This document shows positions 4,126-10,884 of a stretch of 17,694 bases of DNA, piece after piece. The DNA is taken from the NCBI GenBank assembly GCA_002780065.1, contig PEWQ01000070.1:1-17694 (forward strand), read 5' to 3'. The stretch's first letter is position 1. The number at the start of each line of letters is the position of its first letter. The position numbers were made by a program, and so were the translations under genes. Below the pieces are notes generated by a model. The model was not told where the DNA came from. It searched no databases and was given only the letters and a program-made list of their open reading frames with translations. Source of the stretch: Candidatus Hydrogenedentes bacterium CG07_land_8_20_14_0_80_42_17. GTDB taxonomy: Bacteria; UBA8481.

Positions 4126-4144
4126 AAGTTAGAAATTCTAACTT
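4126..4144. promoter_or_regulatory. Probable operator of the toxin-antitoxin operon
   Basis: AAGTTAGAA-A-TTCTAACTT is a perfect inverted repeat with 9-bp arms and a single central base. Its right end overlaps the first two bases of the proposed -35 box (4143-4148). AbrB-family antitoxins usually bind DNA as dimers and repress their own operon, so this is the expected place and shape for their binding site. The sequence symmetry is seen directly; the binding is inferred. Confidence 0.6.
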
Positions 4145-4171
4145 GATATACTTTCATTTAAATTGTATATA
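4143..4171 (+). promoter_or_regulatory. Sigma70-type promoter of the toxin-antitoxin operon
   Basis: TTGATA at 4143-4148 and TATATA at 4166-4171 are separated by 17 bp. TATATT at 4168-4173 is an alternative -10. Transcription would begin near 4178, leaving a leader of only about 12 nt that consists mostly of the Shine-Dalgarno sequence GAGGTG ahead of the ATG at 4191. Confidence 0.5.
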
Positions 4172-4190
4172 TTGTTTAGAGGTGAGATTA

Positions 4191-4460
4191 ATGAGGGAGA
4201 TGACTATTACAAAATTAAAGGCAAAGAATCAGCTAACGATACCAAATAGTATCGTAAAGCGACTGCAATTAAAACCAAATGAACTCTTTGCCGTGGACAT
4301 AGCGGAAAATTTTATCAAACTTATTCCTGTAAAAGTAGAACCCAAATATACTGCTAAAGAACTTATGGCTATTGATAAAATCGTGATGCAGGAAAAGACG
4401 AAAGGCAAAGTTACAAGAGCCGGCAAGGACTTTTTGAACTATATTAAAAAGATTTCCTGA
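4191..4460 (+). CDS. AbrB/MazE-family (SpoVT-AbrB domain) antitoxin
   Basis: An 89-residue protein. The N-terminal half carries the swapped-hairpin AbrB signature: KLKAKNQLTIPNSIVKRL, then LKPNELFAVDIAENFIKLIPV, typical of DNA-binding antitoxins and AbrB-like regulators. The C-terminal half is charged (KELMAIDKIVMQ...GKDFLNYIKKIS) and would be the toxin-wrapping tail. The ATG at 4191 is chosen because GAGGTG sits six bases upstream; an in-frame TTG at 4143 lies inside the promoter and operator and has no ribosome site. The toxin gene follows after three bases, so the two are co-transcribed and probably translationally coupled. Autoregulation through the 4126-4144 palindrome is likely. The pair looks richer in A+T than the flanking genes, which fits a mobile module. 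The family is confident; the partner role is inferred from the neighbour. Confidence 0.85.
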   Translation: MREMTITKLKAKNQLTIPNSIVKRLQLKPNELFAVDIAENFIKLIPVKVEPKYTAKELMAIDKIVMQEKTKGKVTRAGKDFLNYIKKIS

Positions 4461-4463
4461 GTA

Positions 4464-4745
4464 ATGAAAAAAATAGTGGTTTTGCCTTCATTTGAACGCT
4501 CTTTTAATAAACTTTCTGCTCAAGAAAAAAAACTAACAACAGAAAGCCTTAAGCGTTTCAACTTTATGCTTGTTTCTAAAAAAATTTTTGTTGGATTGGG
4601 TTTCAAAAAGATTAATCATGATAAATACGAATTAAGAGTTAATATCAGATTACGTGTAATAATAAAGTCGGAAAAAGATGCATATTATCTGGTATTAGTC
4701 GGCAGGCATGATGAGGTAAGAAAATATTTGAGGAATTATAGATAA
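4464..4745 (+). CDS. RelE/ParE-superfamily toxin
   Basis: A 93-residue basic protein with the RelE/ParE layout: an N-terminal strand and helical hairpin (VVLPSFERSFNKLSAQEKK), then beta strands YELRVNIRLRVIIKSEKDAYYLVLVGRHDEV and the C-terminal RKYLRNYR. The strand-rich part resembles ribosome-dependent mRNA interferases that read HDEVYRFL near the end, where a His/Arg pair supports catalysis. The actual activity (mRNA cleavage or gyrase poisoning) cannot be told from sequence. It begins three bases after the antitoxin stop and has no clear ribosome-binding site, so it depends on coupling to the antitoxin, which keeps toxin output low. Antitoxin-first gene order supports a type II module. Confidence is good for the superfamily and moderate for subfamily and activity. 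Confidence 0.8.
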   Translation: MKKIVVLPSFERSFNKLSAQEKKLTTESLKRFNFMLVSKKIFVGLGFKKINHDKYELRVNIRLRVIIKSEKDAYYLVLVGRHDEVRKYLRNYR

Positions 4746-4763: not shown

Positions 4764-5780
4764 ATGAATAATAAATTGTTAACAGTTGTTTATCCATGGA
4801 AAGCAACTTTTTGTCTTACATACAGATGTAATTTGAGATGCGGATTCTGCAGAATTTGGGAGAAAGATTCTTCTGATGAGTTGTCATTTGATGAATGGAT
4901 TCAAGTATTCAAAAAGTCTCCGCAATTTTTGTGGATTGATTTTACCGGAGGAGAAATTCTCACAAGACCTGATTGGCTCGATATCATATCCGCCGCCTAT
5001 AATATTTTAAAACCATTTGCGATTCATCTTCCGACTAACGGCTGGTTGGGAGATAAACTTTCTTTGCTCGCTGAAACAAAATTCAAAAATAAGCTGACAA
5101 TTACAGTTTCGATTGACGGTCCGACTGAGCTTCACGACAAAATGCGCGGCAGAGCCGGTTCGTGGTCTCGTGCTGCGGAAACTTTAAAAATGTTAAGACG
5201 GCTTGGCATTAAATCTGTTGCAGGAATGACTTTGACAAAAGAAAACGAAGATTTTATTTTAGAGACTGTAAGTGAAATTAAAAGATGTGTTCCTGATTTT
5301 AAGGAATCGGAATTGCATATTAATCTCGCTCAGATTTCAGAGCATTATTACGGCAACTCAAGGCGTGATTTCGAACAGGCAGAAAAAATTCCTTCTTGCA
5401 AAGTTAGATTTTGGCCCCCTAAAGAATTTGTAAGATCTATTTTAGAGCGGCGATATCTCGCTCTCTTGCCTGAATTTCTGAAGACTCGAAGATGTCCAAT
5501 GCCCTGCAAAGCGCTCACCTCGTCGCTTTTTGTTTCGCCGCAAGGTAAAGTTTATCCATGCATAACCGACTCCAGAACGATCGGAAATCTTCGAGAAAAT
5601 GGTTTCAATTTAATTGAGATACTATCCTCTCTGCAAAAAGAAAAATTGCGTCAGTCAATAATTGACGGCGATTGCCCTCACTGCTGGACACCGTGCGAAG
5701 CCTATCCAACCGTAATCGAGTCGAATAGTTTTTTGCGATTGACGAAAGATATATTACGAGCGGCAAGGATTATGCTCTAA
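4764..5780 (+). CDS. Radical SAM protein with SPASM-like C-terminal cysteine cluster
   Basis: A 338-residue enzyme. The cluster motif CNLRCGFC places Cys22, Cys26 and Cys29 as ligands of the SAM-cleaving 4Fe-4S cluster. FTGGE at 60-64 is the SAM-binding GGE motif, and TVSIDGPTELHDKMRG is the usual barrel strand of this class. The C-terminus has further cysteines at 244, 248, 266, 304, 307 and 311 (CPMPC, YPC, CPHCWTPCEAYP), as expected for a twitch/SPASM domain binding auxiliary Fe-S clusters. Such proteins act in peptide maturation, cofactor or polysaccharide-linked pathways. No precursor peptide was found beside it, so the substrate is unknown. It starts 18 bp after the toxin stop with no clear ribosome site and no room for a separate promoter, suggesting co-transcription with the toxin-antitoxin pair. 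Its last 11 bases overlap the deacylase gene on the other strand. Confidence 0.88.
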   Translation: MNNKLLTVVYPWKATFCLTYRCNLRCGFCRIWEKDSSDELSFDEWIQVFKKSPQFLWIDFTGGEILTRPDWLDIISAAYNILKPFAIHLPTNGWLGDKLSLLAETKFKNKLTITVSIDGPTELHDKMRGRAGSWSRAAETLKMLRRLGIKSVAGMTLTKENEDFILETVSEIKRCVPDFKESELHINLAQISEHYYGNSRRDFEQAEKIPSCKVRFWPPKEFVRSILERRYLALLPEFLKTRRCPMPCKALTSSLFVSPQGKVYPCITDSRTIGNLRENGFNLIEILSSLQKEKLRQSIIDGDCPHCWTPCEAYPTVIESNSFLRLTKDILRAARIML

Positions 5781-7272
5781 GCACTTTTCCGTTTCTGACT
5801 TCATTTATTATTCCGTTTTGCACAGCAACTTTTCCGTTGACCCAAACCTCTTTTATTCCAATTGGAAATTTTTTTGGATACTGGAATGTGGCTTTGTCTT
5901 TTATTTTGGAAGGATCGAAGATTACGAGATCGGCTGACATTCCGATTTTTATCAATCCGCGGTCAGTTAGCCCTAGCCTTTCTGCCGGCAGAGAAGTGAC
6001 TCTTCTAATTCCTTCCTCTAATGACAAAAGTTTTCCTTCTCCCGTGTATTTGCTGATAAATCTCGGAAAGGTTCCGAATGCTCTAGGATGAGAAAAGTCT
6101 TCAGAAAGCGGCCCCACGATATTTCTATTCGATGAATCGGAACCTATTGCTGTTATATGTTGGGAAATAAATTTGTCGATATTTTTGTAACTCAATTCTT
6201 CGAAAGCCGCAGATGTGTGCGGGTCGGCTTCTAGTATCCGAGCGATTTCTTCTGCTGGATTTTTCAAATTAAATAGTCTTTTACCTCTAAAATTTTCTAC
6301 TTTTGAAGATAGAATTCTTATTCTGTGATTCCAATAAGGATCTTTAGACAATAATTCTTGGATGTGATTTTTAATTTCATCGATGGATTTAATATTTTGA
6401 ACTCCCATTCCGGAAATGAGTTCTGTAGCCGCGGAATCGTAAGGATATAAATCCGTACTGATGTCTATTCCTGATTCGATTCCATTTTTAATTAGTTCTA
6501 AAATTTTATTTGCTTTATTCCAGTTTTGATATCCCCATGCTTTGATATGCGAATACTGAAACTTGACTTTTACTATTCGAGCTATATCTATTGCTTCGTA
6601 TAACGACTCCACTACAAAATCCGATTCGTTTCGAATGTGCGCCGCATAAAGTCTCTTCATATCTGATACTGGTGTAAGAGAGTCGAGCAACTCCAATTTA
6701 TCCGCAGAGCTTCCCGGCACGTAAAAAGTTCCGGTCGACAATCCGAATGCTCCTTCTTCAAGAGCTTTTTTGACCGCATGTAAAATCGATAATCTATCTT
6801 TCGGCGTAGCGGCTCTTGTTTCAGGAATGCCGGCGTAAGTCCGGAGAGTTCCATGCCCTACAAGAGCACACACATTTACAGCAGGTTGAGCTTCTTCAAG
6901 CCGCTGTAAATAATCTCCAAAACTTTCCCAGTTCGGTTTGAGCTTGAATCGCTCCAGCCCTCTACCTCGTCTTTCTCTCATATTGGAATTAATTGGCGCC
7001 GCTGAATATCCGCAGTTCCCAATTACATCCGTGGTCACTCCCTGTTGAATTTTAGATGCTGCGCTCGGATCGATTAGAAGGAAATGATCTCCATGAGAAT
7101 GGATATCTATGAATCCCGGCGCTATGTAATCCGAACATTCATGCCTTTCGCTTGATATTTCGGAGATATCAGTTATTTTGCCGTTTTCTATCGATAGCTT
7201 TCCAAAAAATATTTTTCGTCCGCTTCCATCGATAATATTTCCCTGCAAATTATTTAACCGTTCATTGTTCAT
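5770..7272 (-). CDS. N-acyl-D-amino-acid deacylase (D-aminoacylase family amidohydrolase)
   Basis: A 500-residue cytoplasmic metal-dependent hydrolase that removes acyl groups from N-acyl-D-amino acids, which may serve in recycling peptidoglycan-derived or scavenged D-amino acids. Family landmarks in order: PGFIDIHSHGDH with the metal-binding His58 and His60; QGVTTDVIGNCGYSAAP with the metal-bridging Cys87; GHGTLR; GAFGLSTGTFYVPG; AAHIRNESD and SHIKAWG with further His ligands; AIGSDSS with the catalytic Asp; and RAFGTFPRF with the SLPAERLGLTDRG closing segment. Length matches the family. I use the ATG at 7272; two GTG codons at 7281 and 7278 would add three residues, but those bases belong to an intergenic repeat. 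No clear ribosome-binding site is visible. The 3' end overlaps the radical SAM gene. Confidence 0.92.
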   Translation of the reverse strand: MNNERLNNLQGNIIDGSGRKIFFGKLSIENGKITDISEISSERHECSDYIAPGFIDIHSHGDHFLLIDPSAASKIQQGVTTDVIGNCGYSAAPINSNMRERRGRGLERFKLKPNWESFGDYLQRLEEAQPAVNVCALVGHGTLRTYAGIPETRAATPKDRLSILHAVKKALEEGAFGLSTGTFYVPGSSADKLELLDSLTPVSDMKRLYAAHIRNESDFVVESLYEAIDIARIVKVKFQYSHIKAWGYQNWNKANKILELIKNGIESGIDISTDLYPYDSAATELISGMGVQNIKSIDEIKNHIQELLSKDPYWNHRIRILSSKVENFRGKRLFNLKNPAEEIARILEADPHTSAAFEELSYKNIDKFISQHITAIGSDSSNRNIVGPLSEDFSHPRAFGTFPRFISKYTGEGKLLSLEEGIRRVTSLPAERLGLTDRGLIKIGMSADLVIFDPSKIKDKATFQYPKKFPIGIKEVWVNGKVAVQNGIINEVRNGKVLRA

Positions 7273-7277
7273 ATGCA

Positions 7278-7345
7278 CCACGAATGCTTACTAATGAAAA
7301 AATTATTAAACCACGAATGGACATGAATTTACACAAATAAAAAAA
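7278..7345. repeat. CCACGAATG-family intergenic repeat, two copies
   Basis: CCACGAATG occurs at 7278-7286 and 7311-7319, 33 bp apart. The second continues as GACATGAATTTACACAAATA. The first copy abuts the ATG of the deacylase gene, so the repeat supplies its immediate upstream sequence. An inverted relative lies at 7852-7884. Confidence 0.6.
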
Positions 7346-7448: not shown

Positions 7449-7772
7449 TATGTTATTATATTTGAAATTGCAAATTGGAAAGTGCAAATTGAAAATTTCA
7501 TTTTTCCAATTTTCATTTTTCAATTATTTCACACGTTCTTTGAAAAATAGGCTGGAGACAAGGAAAAAAAGATAAAATAAAAAATTATTTTAAAAATTTC
7601 AGTGTCTTGGTATCTGGTATGTTATTATATTTAAAATTGCAAATTGGAAAGTGCAAATTGAAAATTTCATTTTTCCAATTTTTATTTTTCAATTATTTCA
7701 CACGTTCTTTGGAAGATAGGCTGGAGACAAGGAAAAAAATAAAAAATTATTTAAAAAATCTCCGTGGCTCGG
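7437..7772. repeat. Tandem duplication, two copies of about 165 bp
   Basis: Copy 1 (about 7437-7598) and copy 2 (about 7599-7772) are nearly identical over most of their length. The offset is 162 bp at the left end and 169 bp after a small insertion (TCTGGTA) in copy 2. Each contains a strong AT-rich hairpin with AATTGGAAA and TTTCCAATT arms (7473-7511 and 7642-7680) and the shared block ACACGTTCTTTG followed by GGCTGGAGACAAGG. Confidence 0.85.
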
Positions 7773-7853
7773 TGACTCCGTGATAAAATTCTCTGTATTT
7801 CCGTAGTTTAAAAATGTGACTTACACGGTTCCGGTTAATTATTTATTAAAAAT

Positions 7854-7948
7854 ATTAGTGTGTATTAGTGTTCATTAGTGGTTCGTATTTTTTCGTCTTC
7901 ATTAGCGGTTCGTATTTTTTCGTCTTCTTTAGCGGTTCGTCTTTTGTA
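7854..7948. repeat. Short tandem repeats: 10-bp ATTAGTG series grading into a 27-bp repeat
   Basis: ATTAGTG recurs at 7854, 7864 and 7874 (10-bp period). From 7874 a 27-bp unit, ATTAG[T/C]GGTTCGTA followed by T-rich sequence and CGTCTTC, repeats at 7901 and, with changes, at 7928. The block ends 12 bp before the stop codon of rho. Confidence 0.8.
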
Positions 7949-7960
7949 TTAACTATCTTT

Positions 7961-9058
7961 TTATCTTACCGGGATTGTTTTCAGAAAATCATCATTTGTT
8001 TCATACTTATTTATTTTGTCTAGAAGCAGAACCATAGCATCATAAGGAGAAAGTGAGCCGATAGCTCGCCTGAGAATACGCATCTTCATCAGACGCTCTA
8101 TGGAGAAAAGCTTCTCTTCTCTTCGAGTACTTGTTTGAATTAAATCCAAAGAAGGAAACATTCTTTGTTCAGCCAATTTTCTTGATAGGACTATTTCAGT
8201 ATTGCCTGTTCCTTTGAACTCCTGAAAGATTATATCGTCCATTCTACTGCCTGTCTCTATAAGCGCAGTTGCGATTACAGTTAGACTTCCGCCTTGATCG
8301 ATCTTCCTGGCGGCGCCGAAGAATTTTCTGGGTCTCTGCATTGCGGCAGAATCAAGCCCGCCTGTTAAAGTTTTTCCGGAAGATTCGGTAAACTGATTGT
8401 AGGCCCTTGCAAGTCTGGTTAGAGAATCGAGCAGAATAACTACGTCTTTTCCTTCCAGAGCCGATTGTCTTGCGGCAAGAAATGTGTCTTCGACAGCTTT
8501 AACATGCTCATTGACCGTTTGGTCGGAACAAGAAGCTATAACTTCCGCGGGAACACTGCGCCGAAAATCTGTCACCTCTTCGGGACGCTCATCCACAAGA
8601 AGAGCAATGACTCTGACTTCAGGATGATTTACATTGAGCGCGTGCGCGATTTTTTGAAGCATGATAGTTTTTCCTGTTTTCGGCGGAGCAACAATCATTG
8701 CGCGTTGCCCTCTGCCGATTGGCGCAAATAGGTCTATCAGCCTTGTGGTCAATTCGCCTTTTGAAGTTTCAAATTTGAATACATCGTGCGGGTCAACTGC
8801 TACAAGCCGGTCAAATTTCTTTTCGATTTCGCGAATGAGAATCATTCGCTCCCTGCTCGGACGGGTATCAGATTTCTTTTCCGCCCCAAAAAGATAATCC
8901 TCTCGACTGTGTTTTCTAAATCTGTCTCGATTGTTTCTGCTACGGTTATCATGCCTGCTGCGCTTTTGATTTCGGTCACGCCTGCCGAATTCTCGGCGCT
9001 CGTTTCTGTTATCGTTTTCTTTTTCGACTTTTTTCCAGTCCGGTCTGTTTGAGTTCAT
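7961..9058 (-). CDS. rho: Transcription termination factor Rho lacking the OB-fold RNA-binding domain
   Basis: A 365-residue RNA-dependent ATPase, shorter than the roughly 420 residues of E. coli Rho. Residues about 76-365 match the connector and RecA-like core: FAPIGRGQRAMIVAPPKTGKT (P-loop 124-131), LLVDERPEEVTDFRR, ILLDSLTRLARAYN, the Q-loop region TLTGGLDSAAMQRPRKFFGA, and TNDDF near the end. Residues 1-72 are low complexity, with 18 Arg, 9 Asn and many Asp/Glu/Lys, and show neither the Rho_N helices nor the cold-shock-like OB fold that forms the primary RNA site. The start overlaps the glmS stop by four bases, so there is no upstream room for a missing domain. It is the last gene of the operon. 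It may be the only Rho or a paralogue; this window cannot tell. Identity is certain; altered RNA loading is inference. Confidence 0.95.
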   Translation of the reverse strand: MNSNRPDWKKVEKENDNRNERREFGRRDRNQKRSRHDNRSRNNRDRFRKHSREDYLFGAEKKSDTRPSRERMILIREIEKKFDRLVAVDPHDVFKFETSKGELTTRLIDLFAPIGRGQRAMIVAPPKTGKTIMLQKIAHALNVNHPEVRVIALLVDERPEEVTDFRRSVPAEVIASCSDQTVNEHVKAVEDTFLAARQSALEGKDVVILLDSLTRLARAYNQFTESSGKTLTGGLDSAAMQRPRKFFGAARKIDQGGSLTVIATALIETGSRMDDIIFQEFKGTGNTEIVLSRKLAEQRMFPSLDLIQTSTRREEKLFSIERLMKMRILRRAIGSLSPYDAMVLLLDKINKYETNDDFLKTIPVR

Positions 9059-10884
9059 TCTACTGTTACCGACTTAGCTAGATTTCTCGGTTGATCCACA
9101 TTGCAACCGCGTTTTACGGCAATGTGATAAGCGAGCAGTTGAAGCGGAATTACATTTAGCAAAGGTGAGAGAAGATGATGCGTTGCCGGAACTTCGATTA
9201 TATGATCCGCATATTTGGAAATTTCTGTGTCGCCTTCTGTTGCAATTGCGATTACTTTGCCTTTTCTTGCCTTTACTTCTTGTATGTTCGAAATGATCTT
9301 CTCATACGCACTGTCTTTAGTCGCAATTACAACAACCGGCATGTTCTCATCTATCAGAGCTATTGGTCCGTGCTTCATCTCAGATGCTGGATACCCTTCA
9401 GCATGAATGTAGCTTATTTCTTTCATCTTCAAAGCGCCTTCGAGCGCTACTGGAAAATTTATTCCTCTTCCTAAATATAGAAAGTTAGATGTATTGCAAT
9501 ATTCGTCTGCGATTTTTTTGATCTCATCGCTCGTAGCCAAAATTCTTTTTATCTTTCCGGGAATGTCGAGTAAACCTCTCAATATCTTTTTTCCTTCTGT
9601 TGATGAAAGATCTCTCTGCCGCCCGAGCAAAATGCCGATAAGAGCCAATACTGTAATTTGTGAGGTGAAGGCTTTAGTAGAGGCAACTCCGATTTCAGGA
9701 CCCGCATGTATGTAAACTCCGCCCATCGATTCTCTGGCGATTGTGGAGCCTACTACATTAACTATCCCAAGTCCGAGTCCGCTCTTTTCTTTTGCTTCGC
9801 GTAATGCCGCTAATGTATCGGCGGTTTCGCCTGATTGGCTTATTACAAACAAAACAGTAGACTCATCGATGATTGGATTTCTGTATCGGAACTCCGATGC
9901 GTATTCCACTTCTACAGGCGTTCTCGCAAGCTCTTCGATGATGTATTCCCCGACTAGAGCCGCATGCCACGATGTTCCGCATCCTGCAATTATTACTCGT
10001 TTGATTGAACGAAGATTTTCTAAGTTTAAGTTCAAACCTTGAAGTCTCGATGTTCCTGATGCAAGTATCATTCTGCCGCGCATTGAGTTCGCTACGGTCT
10101 CTGGCTGTTCAAATATCTCTTTCAGCATGAAATGTTCGAAGCCGCTCTTCTCGATTGAACTTATATCCCAATCAACTGTGCAGCTCTCTTTGTTTACCGG
10201 AACTGCGTCTAAAGTCATTGTCTTGTAGCCGTCACGCCCAACTACAACCATTTCGTTGTCTTCGAAATAGATTACTTCTCGGGTGTAAGGAACGATTGGA
10301 GCTACGTCCGAGGCGAGAAAATATTCGTTTTCACCAACGCCTAGTACAAGCGGCGAACCATTTCGAGCGGCAACAAGCAGGTCGGGTTCAGAGACTGAAG
10401 CCGCAATAATTCCGAAAGTTCCGTGAAGCATTCTCAATGCCTGCCCAACTGCACTTGGCAAATTGGAGCCGTTGTAAAATTTTTCGATAAGGTGAACTAT
10501 TACTTCCGTGTCGGTTTCGGAAACAAATATATGCCCGTCTTTCTCCAAAAGTTTTCTAAGTGATGCATGATTCTCGATGATTCCGTTGTGAACAACTGCT
10601 AGTTGCTTCTTCTCGTCTGTGTGAGGATGTGCGTTTATATCGCTGGGAGCTCCGTGCGTTGCCCATCTGGTGTGAGCTATTCCTGCCTTGCCTTTCATAG
10701 AACAGGTTGGAATTCGTTTTTCCAGCTCGCTTATTTTTCCGACTGATTTTACGATGAAAAATTTGTTATCGTCTATTAGAGCAACTCCGGCAGAGTCATA
10801 TCCTCTGTATTCAAGTCTCTTTAAACCTTCAATCAATATCTGCAGAGAATCTCGATTGCCTATGTATCCGACTATTCCACACAT
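9055..10884 (-). CDS. glmS: Glutamine--fructose-6-phosphate aminotransferase (isomerizing)
   Basis: A 609-residue cytoplasmic enzyme converting fructose-6-phosphate and glutamine to glucosamine-6-phosphate, the first step toward UDP-N-acetylglucosamine for peptidoglycan and lipopolysaccharide. It begins MCGIVGYIG, giving the N-terminal Cys nucleophile of class II glutaminases, followed by the glutaminase features YRGYDSAGVAL, HTRWATHG and HPHTD. Two SIS sugar-isomerase domains follow (about 285-420 with CGTSWHA and ISQSGETADT; about 455-590 with EGALKMKEISYIHAEGYPASEMKHGP). The C-terminal NLAKSVTVE is the canonical tail. Length is normal. An AAGGAAGGG ribosome site precedes the ATG. It lies three bases after the CpsB-like gene and overlaps rho by four. 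No glmS ribozyme fits in the upstream gap, so control is probably at the operon promoter. Confidence 0.98.
   Translation of the reverse strand: MCGIVGYIGNRDSLQILIEGLKRLEYRGYDSAGVALIDDNKFFIVKSVGKISELEKRIPTCSMKGKAGIAHTRWATHGAPSDINAHPHTDEKKQLAVVHNGIIENHASLRKLLEKDGHIFVSETDTEVIVHLIEKFYNGSNLPSAVGQALRMLHGTFGIIAASVSEPDLLVAARNGSPLVLGVGENEYFLASDVAPIVPYTREVIYFEDNEMVVVGRDGYKTMTLDAVPVNKESCTVDWDISSIEKSGFEHFMLKEIFEQPETVANSMRGRMILASGTSRLQGLNLNLENLRSIKRVIIAGCGTSWHAALVGEYIIEELARTPVEVEYASEFRYRNPIIDESTVLFVISQSGETADTLAALREAKEKSGLGLGIVNVVGSTIARESMGGVYIHAGPEIGVASTKAFTSQITVLALIGILLGRQRDLSSTEGKKILRGLLDIPGKIKRILATSDEIKKIADEYCNTSNFLYLGRGINFPVALEGALKMKEISYIHAEGYPASEMKHGPIALIDENMPVVVIATKDSAYEKIISNIQEVKARKGKVIAIATEGDTEISKYADHIIEVPATHHLLSPLLNVIPLQLLAYHIAVKRGCNVDQPRNLAKSVTVE

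What the first reader, a model, noticed from the sequence alone, without database searches (positions are those of the whole stretch)
7961..9058. A Rho factor without its RNA-binding OB fold
The ATPase core is complete (P-loop, DERPEEV, LLDS, Q-loop and R-loop regions), but in place of the Rho_N and OB domains there are about 72 residues dominated by Arg, Asn, Asp, Lys and Glu. Known Rho proteins with disordered insertions normally keep the OB fold, which captures C-rich RNA. The gene starts inside the glmS stop codon, so the domain is not hidden upstream. If this is the only Rho, RNA loading must rely on the basic tail or on a partner; if a paralogue, it may be a regulator or a specialised helicase.
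Basis: partly seen in the sequence, partly recalled or inferred. Interest (0 to 1): 0.72.

Follow-up and report, generated by a model that had tools for sequence, protein, structure and literature searches.

The report
Second Rho factor lacking its RNA-binding domain
Beside a normal copy of the transcription-stopping motor Rho, this uncultured bacterium and members of several other bacterial families carry a second, intact-looking Rho motor that has lost the domain used to grab RNA and usually carries a floppy arginine-rich tail instead, which makes it a natural test of how much of Rho's job needs that domain.

Summary
The ORF at 7961-9058 (-) encodes 365 aa: a complete Rho ATPase core (residues ~80-362) behind a ~72-residue Arg/Asn/Asp/Lys/Glu tail, with no Rho_N or OB domain by Pfam or AlphaFold2 (residues 1-65 at pLDDT ~30; a control Rho in the same alignment gives a confident OB barrel). 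It is not the only Rho: contig C6 of the same genome encodes a normal 490-aa Rho with Rho_N and OB. It is not an assembly deletion: the only other genome held from this phylum has a 64%-identical orthologue, also without OB, also overlapping the glmS stop codon by ATGA, also beside an amidohydrolase gene and also accompanied by a normal Rho. Similar OB-less paralogues occur in 14 of 386 sampled genomes (8 families), nearly always beside a full-length Rho. In trees they belong to an old 'Rho2' branch, separate from canonical Rho, in which the OB domain is weak in some members and gone in others. Catalytic, Q-loop and R-loop residues are kept; primary-site RNA binding is lost. Most likely it is a working ATP-driven RNA translocase that loads without rut recognition, through its central channel helped by basic tails or a partner. 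Function is inferred. New variant of a known kind.

The parts
7961..9058 (-). rho2: OB-less Rho paralogue, 365 aa
   Evidence: ORF; Pfam/NCBIfam; orthologue L209:4949-6010 in G001
8843..9058 (-). codons 1-72: disordered, Arg-rich polyampholyte tail (R18 N9 D7 K7 E7, net +11) in place of Rho_N and OB
   Evidence: composition; AlphaFold2 residues 1-65 pLDDT ~30; no Pfam match
8810..8854 (-). codons 69-83: predicted helix joining tail and ATPase core
7973..8821 (-). codons 80-362: Rho/RecA-type ATPase domain; E. coli Rho residue = window residue + 54
   Evidence: Foldseek best match Thermotoga Rho 3l0o, rmsd 1.1 A over 281 columns
8666..8686 (-). Walker A PPKTGKT (125-131; K130 = E. coli K184)
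8573..8593 (-). DERPEEV (156-162; E157 = catalytic E211, R158 = R212)
8423..8434 (-). Walker B LLDS (209-212; D211 = D265)
8351..8389 (-). Q-loop region TESSGKTLTGGLD (224-236; secondary RNA site; K229 = K283)
8243..8257 (-). R-loop ETGSR (268-272; R272 = K326, R in most canonical Rhos as well)
8123..8125 (-). R312 = E. coli R366 (arginine finger); R353 is also kept as R299 (8162-8164)
   Evidence: invariant in 15 OB-less and 46 canonical Rhos
9055..9058 (-). ATGA overlap: rho2 start codon and glmS stop codon; same overlap in G001
9055..10884 (-). glmS (609 aa), upstream neighbour, conserved synteny
5770..7281 (-). amidohydrolase (PF07969), downstream neighbour in both genomes of this phylum

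Best explanation
An old, functional paralogue of Rho ('Rho2') that kept the ATP-driven ring motor and its central RNA channel but lost the N-terminal helix bundle and OB fold. It probably forms its own ring and translocates on single-stranded RNA, but does not recognise C-rich rut sites. Loading is expected through direct capture in the central channel, helped in most lineages by flexible arginine-rich N-terminal tails on the face where the OB domains normally sit, and/or by NusG or another partner. It works beside a canonical Rho, so its likely job is a less selective or targeted termination or RNA/RNA:DNA-remodelling activity. Shown here: gene, domain loss, disorder, conservation, paralogy, intact catalytic and channel residues. 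Inferred: ring formation, translocation, tail-assisted loading, cellular role.
For: All hydrolysis residues (E. coli K184, E211, R212, D265, R353, R366) and secondary-site residues (T323, K326 as R/Q, K283 as K/R, G287, G337) are kept in 15 of 15 OB-less proteins (numbering). Core predicted at pLDDT above 90 and within 1.1-1.5 A of solved Rho. Retained as an orthologue pair with conserved synteny, in 3 of 3 held genomes of one small phylum and in 4 of 5 of another, the fifth being 67% complete. Tails differ in sequence but are basic in nearly all lineages (net +4 to +33). Canonical Rho is present in nearly all the same genomes. Literature: E. coli Rho with defective primary-site binding still terminates at most sites with NusG help, unlike secondary-site mutants (PMC4150792); a charged disordered region in Bacteroides Rho drives RNA-dependent condensation (PMC13269538).
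Against: No biochemical data. The tail is not universal: the complete G019 protein (305 aa) has about 9 residues before the core, so tail-driven loading cannot be the whole story. Unwinding of RNA:DNA hybrids by E. coli Rho is rut- and primary-site-dependent (PMC12203952). Diagnostic substitutions in the core (M219F, F232S, L294M, K298R in all 15; W381 lost in all 15) may alter coupling or partner contacts. The model is a monomer.
Confidence: 0.5

Rival explanations
1. Subunit of mixed hexamers: Rho2 inserts into canonical Rho rings, lowering the number of OB domains and tuning or damping termination.
For: Both sides of the ATPase interface (E211/R212 and R353/R366) are conserved, so hetero-interfaces are plausible; nearly always found with a canonical Rho; works even for the tail-less G019 form.
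Against: Rho2 has diverged far from its own canonical Rho (48% identity) and has its own fixed substitutions; all own-ring catalytic residues are kept, which a pure modulator would not need. No direct test.
Confidence: 0.22
2. RNA-remodelling helicase unrelated to termination, working like tail-bearing RNA helicases (RNP, mRNA or RNA:DNA hybrid remodelling).
For: [quoted passage not shown] RG-rich tails of 120-230 aa in families f68, f160, f175.
Against: No genomic context tie to RNA metabolism was found; neighbours are housekeeping and differ between lineages. The window's own tail has only one RG/GR.
Confidence: 0.18
3. Decaying duplicate or pseudogene of the local canonical rho.
For: Missing domain.
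Against: No stop or frameshift; catalytic residues invariant; orthologue at 64% identity; a clade of Rho2 with its own canonical Rho is rejected (AU p = 0.012).
Confidence: 0.02
4. Assembly deletion or wrong start that removed the OB region.
For: MAG of 207 contigs.
Against: glmS is intact and abuts the start; same junction and same domain loss in G001; stop-to-stop frame only 370 aa.
Confidence: 0.01

Closest known systems
Canonical transcription termination factor Rho (E. coli type; TIGR00767, NF006886)
   Same: ATPase core, Walker motifs, catalytic Glu, Arg finger, Q- and R-loops; about 50% identity in the core
   Different: No Rho_N helix bundle, no OB fold, so no primary RNA site; M219F, F232S, L294M, K298R; lies on a separate branch from canonical Rho (100/98)
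NCBIfam NF041509 'paralog_Rho2, transcription termination factor Rho, short form'
   Same: Second Rho, short, 360-position profile
   Different: The first ~77 profile positions are matched by canonical Rhos and so hold the OB region; the window protein matches only 77-359 and scores 349 against a cut-off of 628. It is not this family
Rho with disordered insertion (Bacteroides thetaiotaomicron, Mycobacterium)
   Same: Charged, disordered N-terminal region that binds RNA or forms condensates (PMC13269538, PMC8828861)
   Different: Those keep the OB fold and are the main Rho; here the disordered stretch replaces the OB fold in a second copy
FliI/SctN and F1 ATPases (PF00006 relatives)
   Same: Same RecA-like ring ATPase superfamily
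   Different: Far lower scores (below 92 bits); no Q/R-loop signature

Membership tests
Rho (NF006886 equivalog) | Score above curated cut-off | tested here: met
   402.5 bits against 315; but TIGR00767 387.6 against 509 is not met
[quoted passage not shown]
   numbering
Rho | Secondary RNA site (Q-loop, R-loop) | tested here: met
Rho | Primary RNA site: OB fold PF07497 and Rho_N PF07498 | tested here: not met
   control
Rho | Hexameric ring, RNA-stimulated ATPase, 5'-3' translocation, termination | not testable with these tools
   needs purified protein
NF041509 paralog_Rho2 short form | Score above cut-off 628 over the whole profile including the OB region | tested here: not met
   349 bits, positions 77-359 only
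OB-less Rho2 group described here | Rho core with F219, S232, M294, R298 (E. coli numbers), no PF07497, second copy beside a canonical Rho | tested here: met
   exceptions: G177 without a detected canonical Rho (81% complete), two members cut by contig ends

The most novel reading that the evidence does not exclude
A distinct branch of Rho motors, spread over several small uncultivated phyla and missed by surveys that start from the OB domain, that works without a primary RNA site and in most lineages uses disordered arginine-rich tails to collect RNA, giving these bacteria two functionally separate Rho machines in one cell.
Probability: 0.4. Interest if true: 0.75.

Novelty: new variant of a known kind. 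Interest (0 to 1): 0.56.

Why it matters
Rho's OB domain is taken as its entry point for RNA, yet genetic work in E. coli suggests most terminators tolerate weak primary binding if NusG helps. A natural Rho with no OB domain, kept over long evolutionary times next to a normal Rho, makes that question directly testable, and could provide a minimal Rho motor. It also shows a blind spot: a 643-genus Rho survey began with PF07497 (PMC11829017) and could not have seen these proteins, while annotation by NF006886 would simply call them 'Rho'.

Tried and rejected
Assembly deletion or misplaced start: rejected. Recent duplication of the local rho: rejected. NF041509 as its family: rejected. Genome-contig scan with a 34-aa Rho2 motif: one of the two patterns chosen was generic and every Rho ORF recovered kept an OB-like signature, so no named organism with an OB-less Rho was obtained. 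Plasmid searches gave only relatives below 60% identity; the two with at least 80% coverage were not examined. glmS linkage outside this phylum: a glmS lies 3.7 kb from rho2 in G030 with other genes between and was not seen in the other loci read, so it is not treated as a functional link. A partner NusG paralogue: only one NusG found in G000 and G001. One single loss of the OB domain: supported with 12 proteins (98/88) but one or two losses fit equally once L219 and L249 are added (AU p 0.285). Moreira et al. 2024 (NAR 52:8979), the main survey of Rho architectures, is not held, so an earlier mention of OB-less Rhos cannot be excluded.

Full report
What is there. The ORF at 7961-9058 (-) encodes 365 aa. 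Residues 80-362 match the Rho ATPase core (NF006886 402 bits; E. coli Rho 1pv4 E = 5e-90; Foldseek best match Thermotoga Rho, rmsd 1.1 A). Nothing matches Rho_N (PF07498) or the OB domain (PF07497). The first 72 residues are 67% R/N/D/K/E, net +11, a composition reached by no other 72-residue stretch of the main window proteins tested. AlphaFold2 with a 30-sequence alignment of mostly canonical Rhos leaves residues 1-65 at pLDDT about 30, predicts a helix at 69-83 and a core above 90. The same alignment led by a canonical Rho gives a confident OB barrel at residues 73-143, so the method would have shown one.

Is it real. The start codon overlaps the glmS stop codon (ATGA) and the stop-to-stop frame is 370 aa, so nothing is hidden upstream. 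The only other genome held from this phylum, G001 (another family of the same order), has a 353-aa orthologue at 64% identity with the same ATGA overlap behind glmS, the same amidohydrolase behind it, an Arg/Gly-rich tail and no OB. An assembly deletion is therefore excluded for practical purposes.

Only Rho or paralogue. Contig C6 of the window's genome encodes a 490-aa Rho with Rho_N (61 bits) and OB (116 bits); G001 likewise. The window protein is a paralogue, 48% identical. Holding the two Rho2s with their own two canonical Rhos as one clade is rejected (AU p = 0.012).

How widespread. Profile searches over 386 genomes of about 260 families and reading of the loci with Pfam checks give OB-less second Rhos in 14 genomes of 8 families: f1 and f2 (own phylum, 2 of 2 genomes), f31 (3 of 3 genomes of its phylum), f68 (4 of 5 genomes of its phylum hold a high-scoring Rho2, the fifth being 67% complete; three read in full), f160, f175, f20 and f161; one more lies on an IMG/VR contig (L219). 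Two of the 14 (G166, G312) run to or near a contig end, so absence of OB is unproven there. A canonical Rho, or at least a second Rho match, was found in every one of these genomes except G177, which is 81% complete.

Where it comes from. In the 63-row tree Rho2 proteins separate from canonical Rho with 100/98 support. Within Rho2, L046, L045, L198, L203 and L044 keep an OB domain of falling strength (45, 41, 28, 24 and 21 bits, against 116 for the canonical copy), and the OB-less forms group together (98/88). Adding L219 and L249 leaves one or two losses equally likely. The simplest history is an old duplication followed by weakening and loss of the primary RNA site.

What it probably does. 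All 15 OB-less proteins compared keep the residues for ATP hydrolysis and the central RNA channel. They share substitutions not usual in canonical Rho: M219F, F232S, L294M, K298R (15 of 15) and loss of W381. M219 lies just after the DERPEEV segment near the nucleotide site; from general knowledge, M219 changes alter bicyclomycin response in E. coli, so altered drug sensitivity is a prediction, not a result. A motor that keeps the engine and loses the rut reader should load less selectively. Precedent: in E. coli, primary-site mutants still terminate at most sites with NusG help while secondary-site mutants do not (PMC4150792). The basic tails resemble in charge the disordered region that drives RNA-dependent condensation of Bacteroides Rho (PMC13269538). 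But G019's protein has almost no tail, so tail-assisted loading is at most lineage-specific, and mixed hexamers remain a serious rival.

Novelty. NF041509 'Rho2 short form' keeps the OB region and is not this. Published conservation work started from PF07497 (PMC11829017) and would have missed OB-less forms. I found no description of OB-less Rhos in the held papers, but the most relevant survey (Moreira et al. 2024) could not be read. I rate it a new variant of a known kind.

Noticed in passing
L219:2908-3867: An IMG/VR contig (28 kb, IMGVR_UViG_2909979649_000009) carries a 319-aa OB-less Rho; another ORF in the piece read looks like a phage terminase small subunit. Phage gene or host flank is unclear.
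   Followed up: partly
L220:1445-3212: A 3.2-kb IMG/VR contig where a Rho fragment overlaps the 3' end of a T4-like major capsid gene; probably an assembly chimera.
   Followed up: partly
L045:4039-5349, L046:4083-5183, L198:718-2148, L203:625-1983, L044:3723-5282: Rho paralogues with a weak, apparently degenerating OB domain (21-45 bits), intermediate between canonical and OB-less Rho.
   Followed up: yes
window 4143-4460 and 4464-4745 (+): Adjacent small genes: a weak MazE-type antitoxin match (17.7 bits, below the cut-off) and an ORF that by eye resembles a RelE/HigB-type toxin but has no Pfam match; possible toxin-antitoxin pair.
   Followed up: partly
window 7700-7960: Short repeats (variants of 'aatacgaaccgctaatgaagacgaaaaa') in the 679-bp gap between rho2 and the amidohydrolase gene.
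   Followed up: no
G177 (f31): OB-less Rho present but no canonical Rho OB domain over threshold; genome only 81% complete, so possibly missing data.
   Followed up: partly
G174: Two NusG-family genes in a genome with an OB-less Rho.
   Followed up: no
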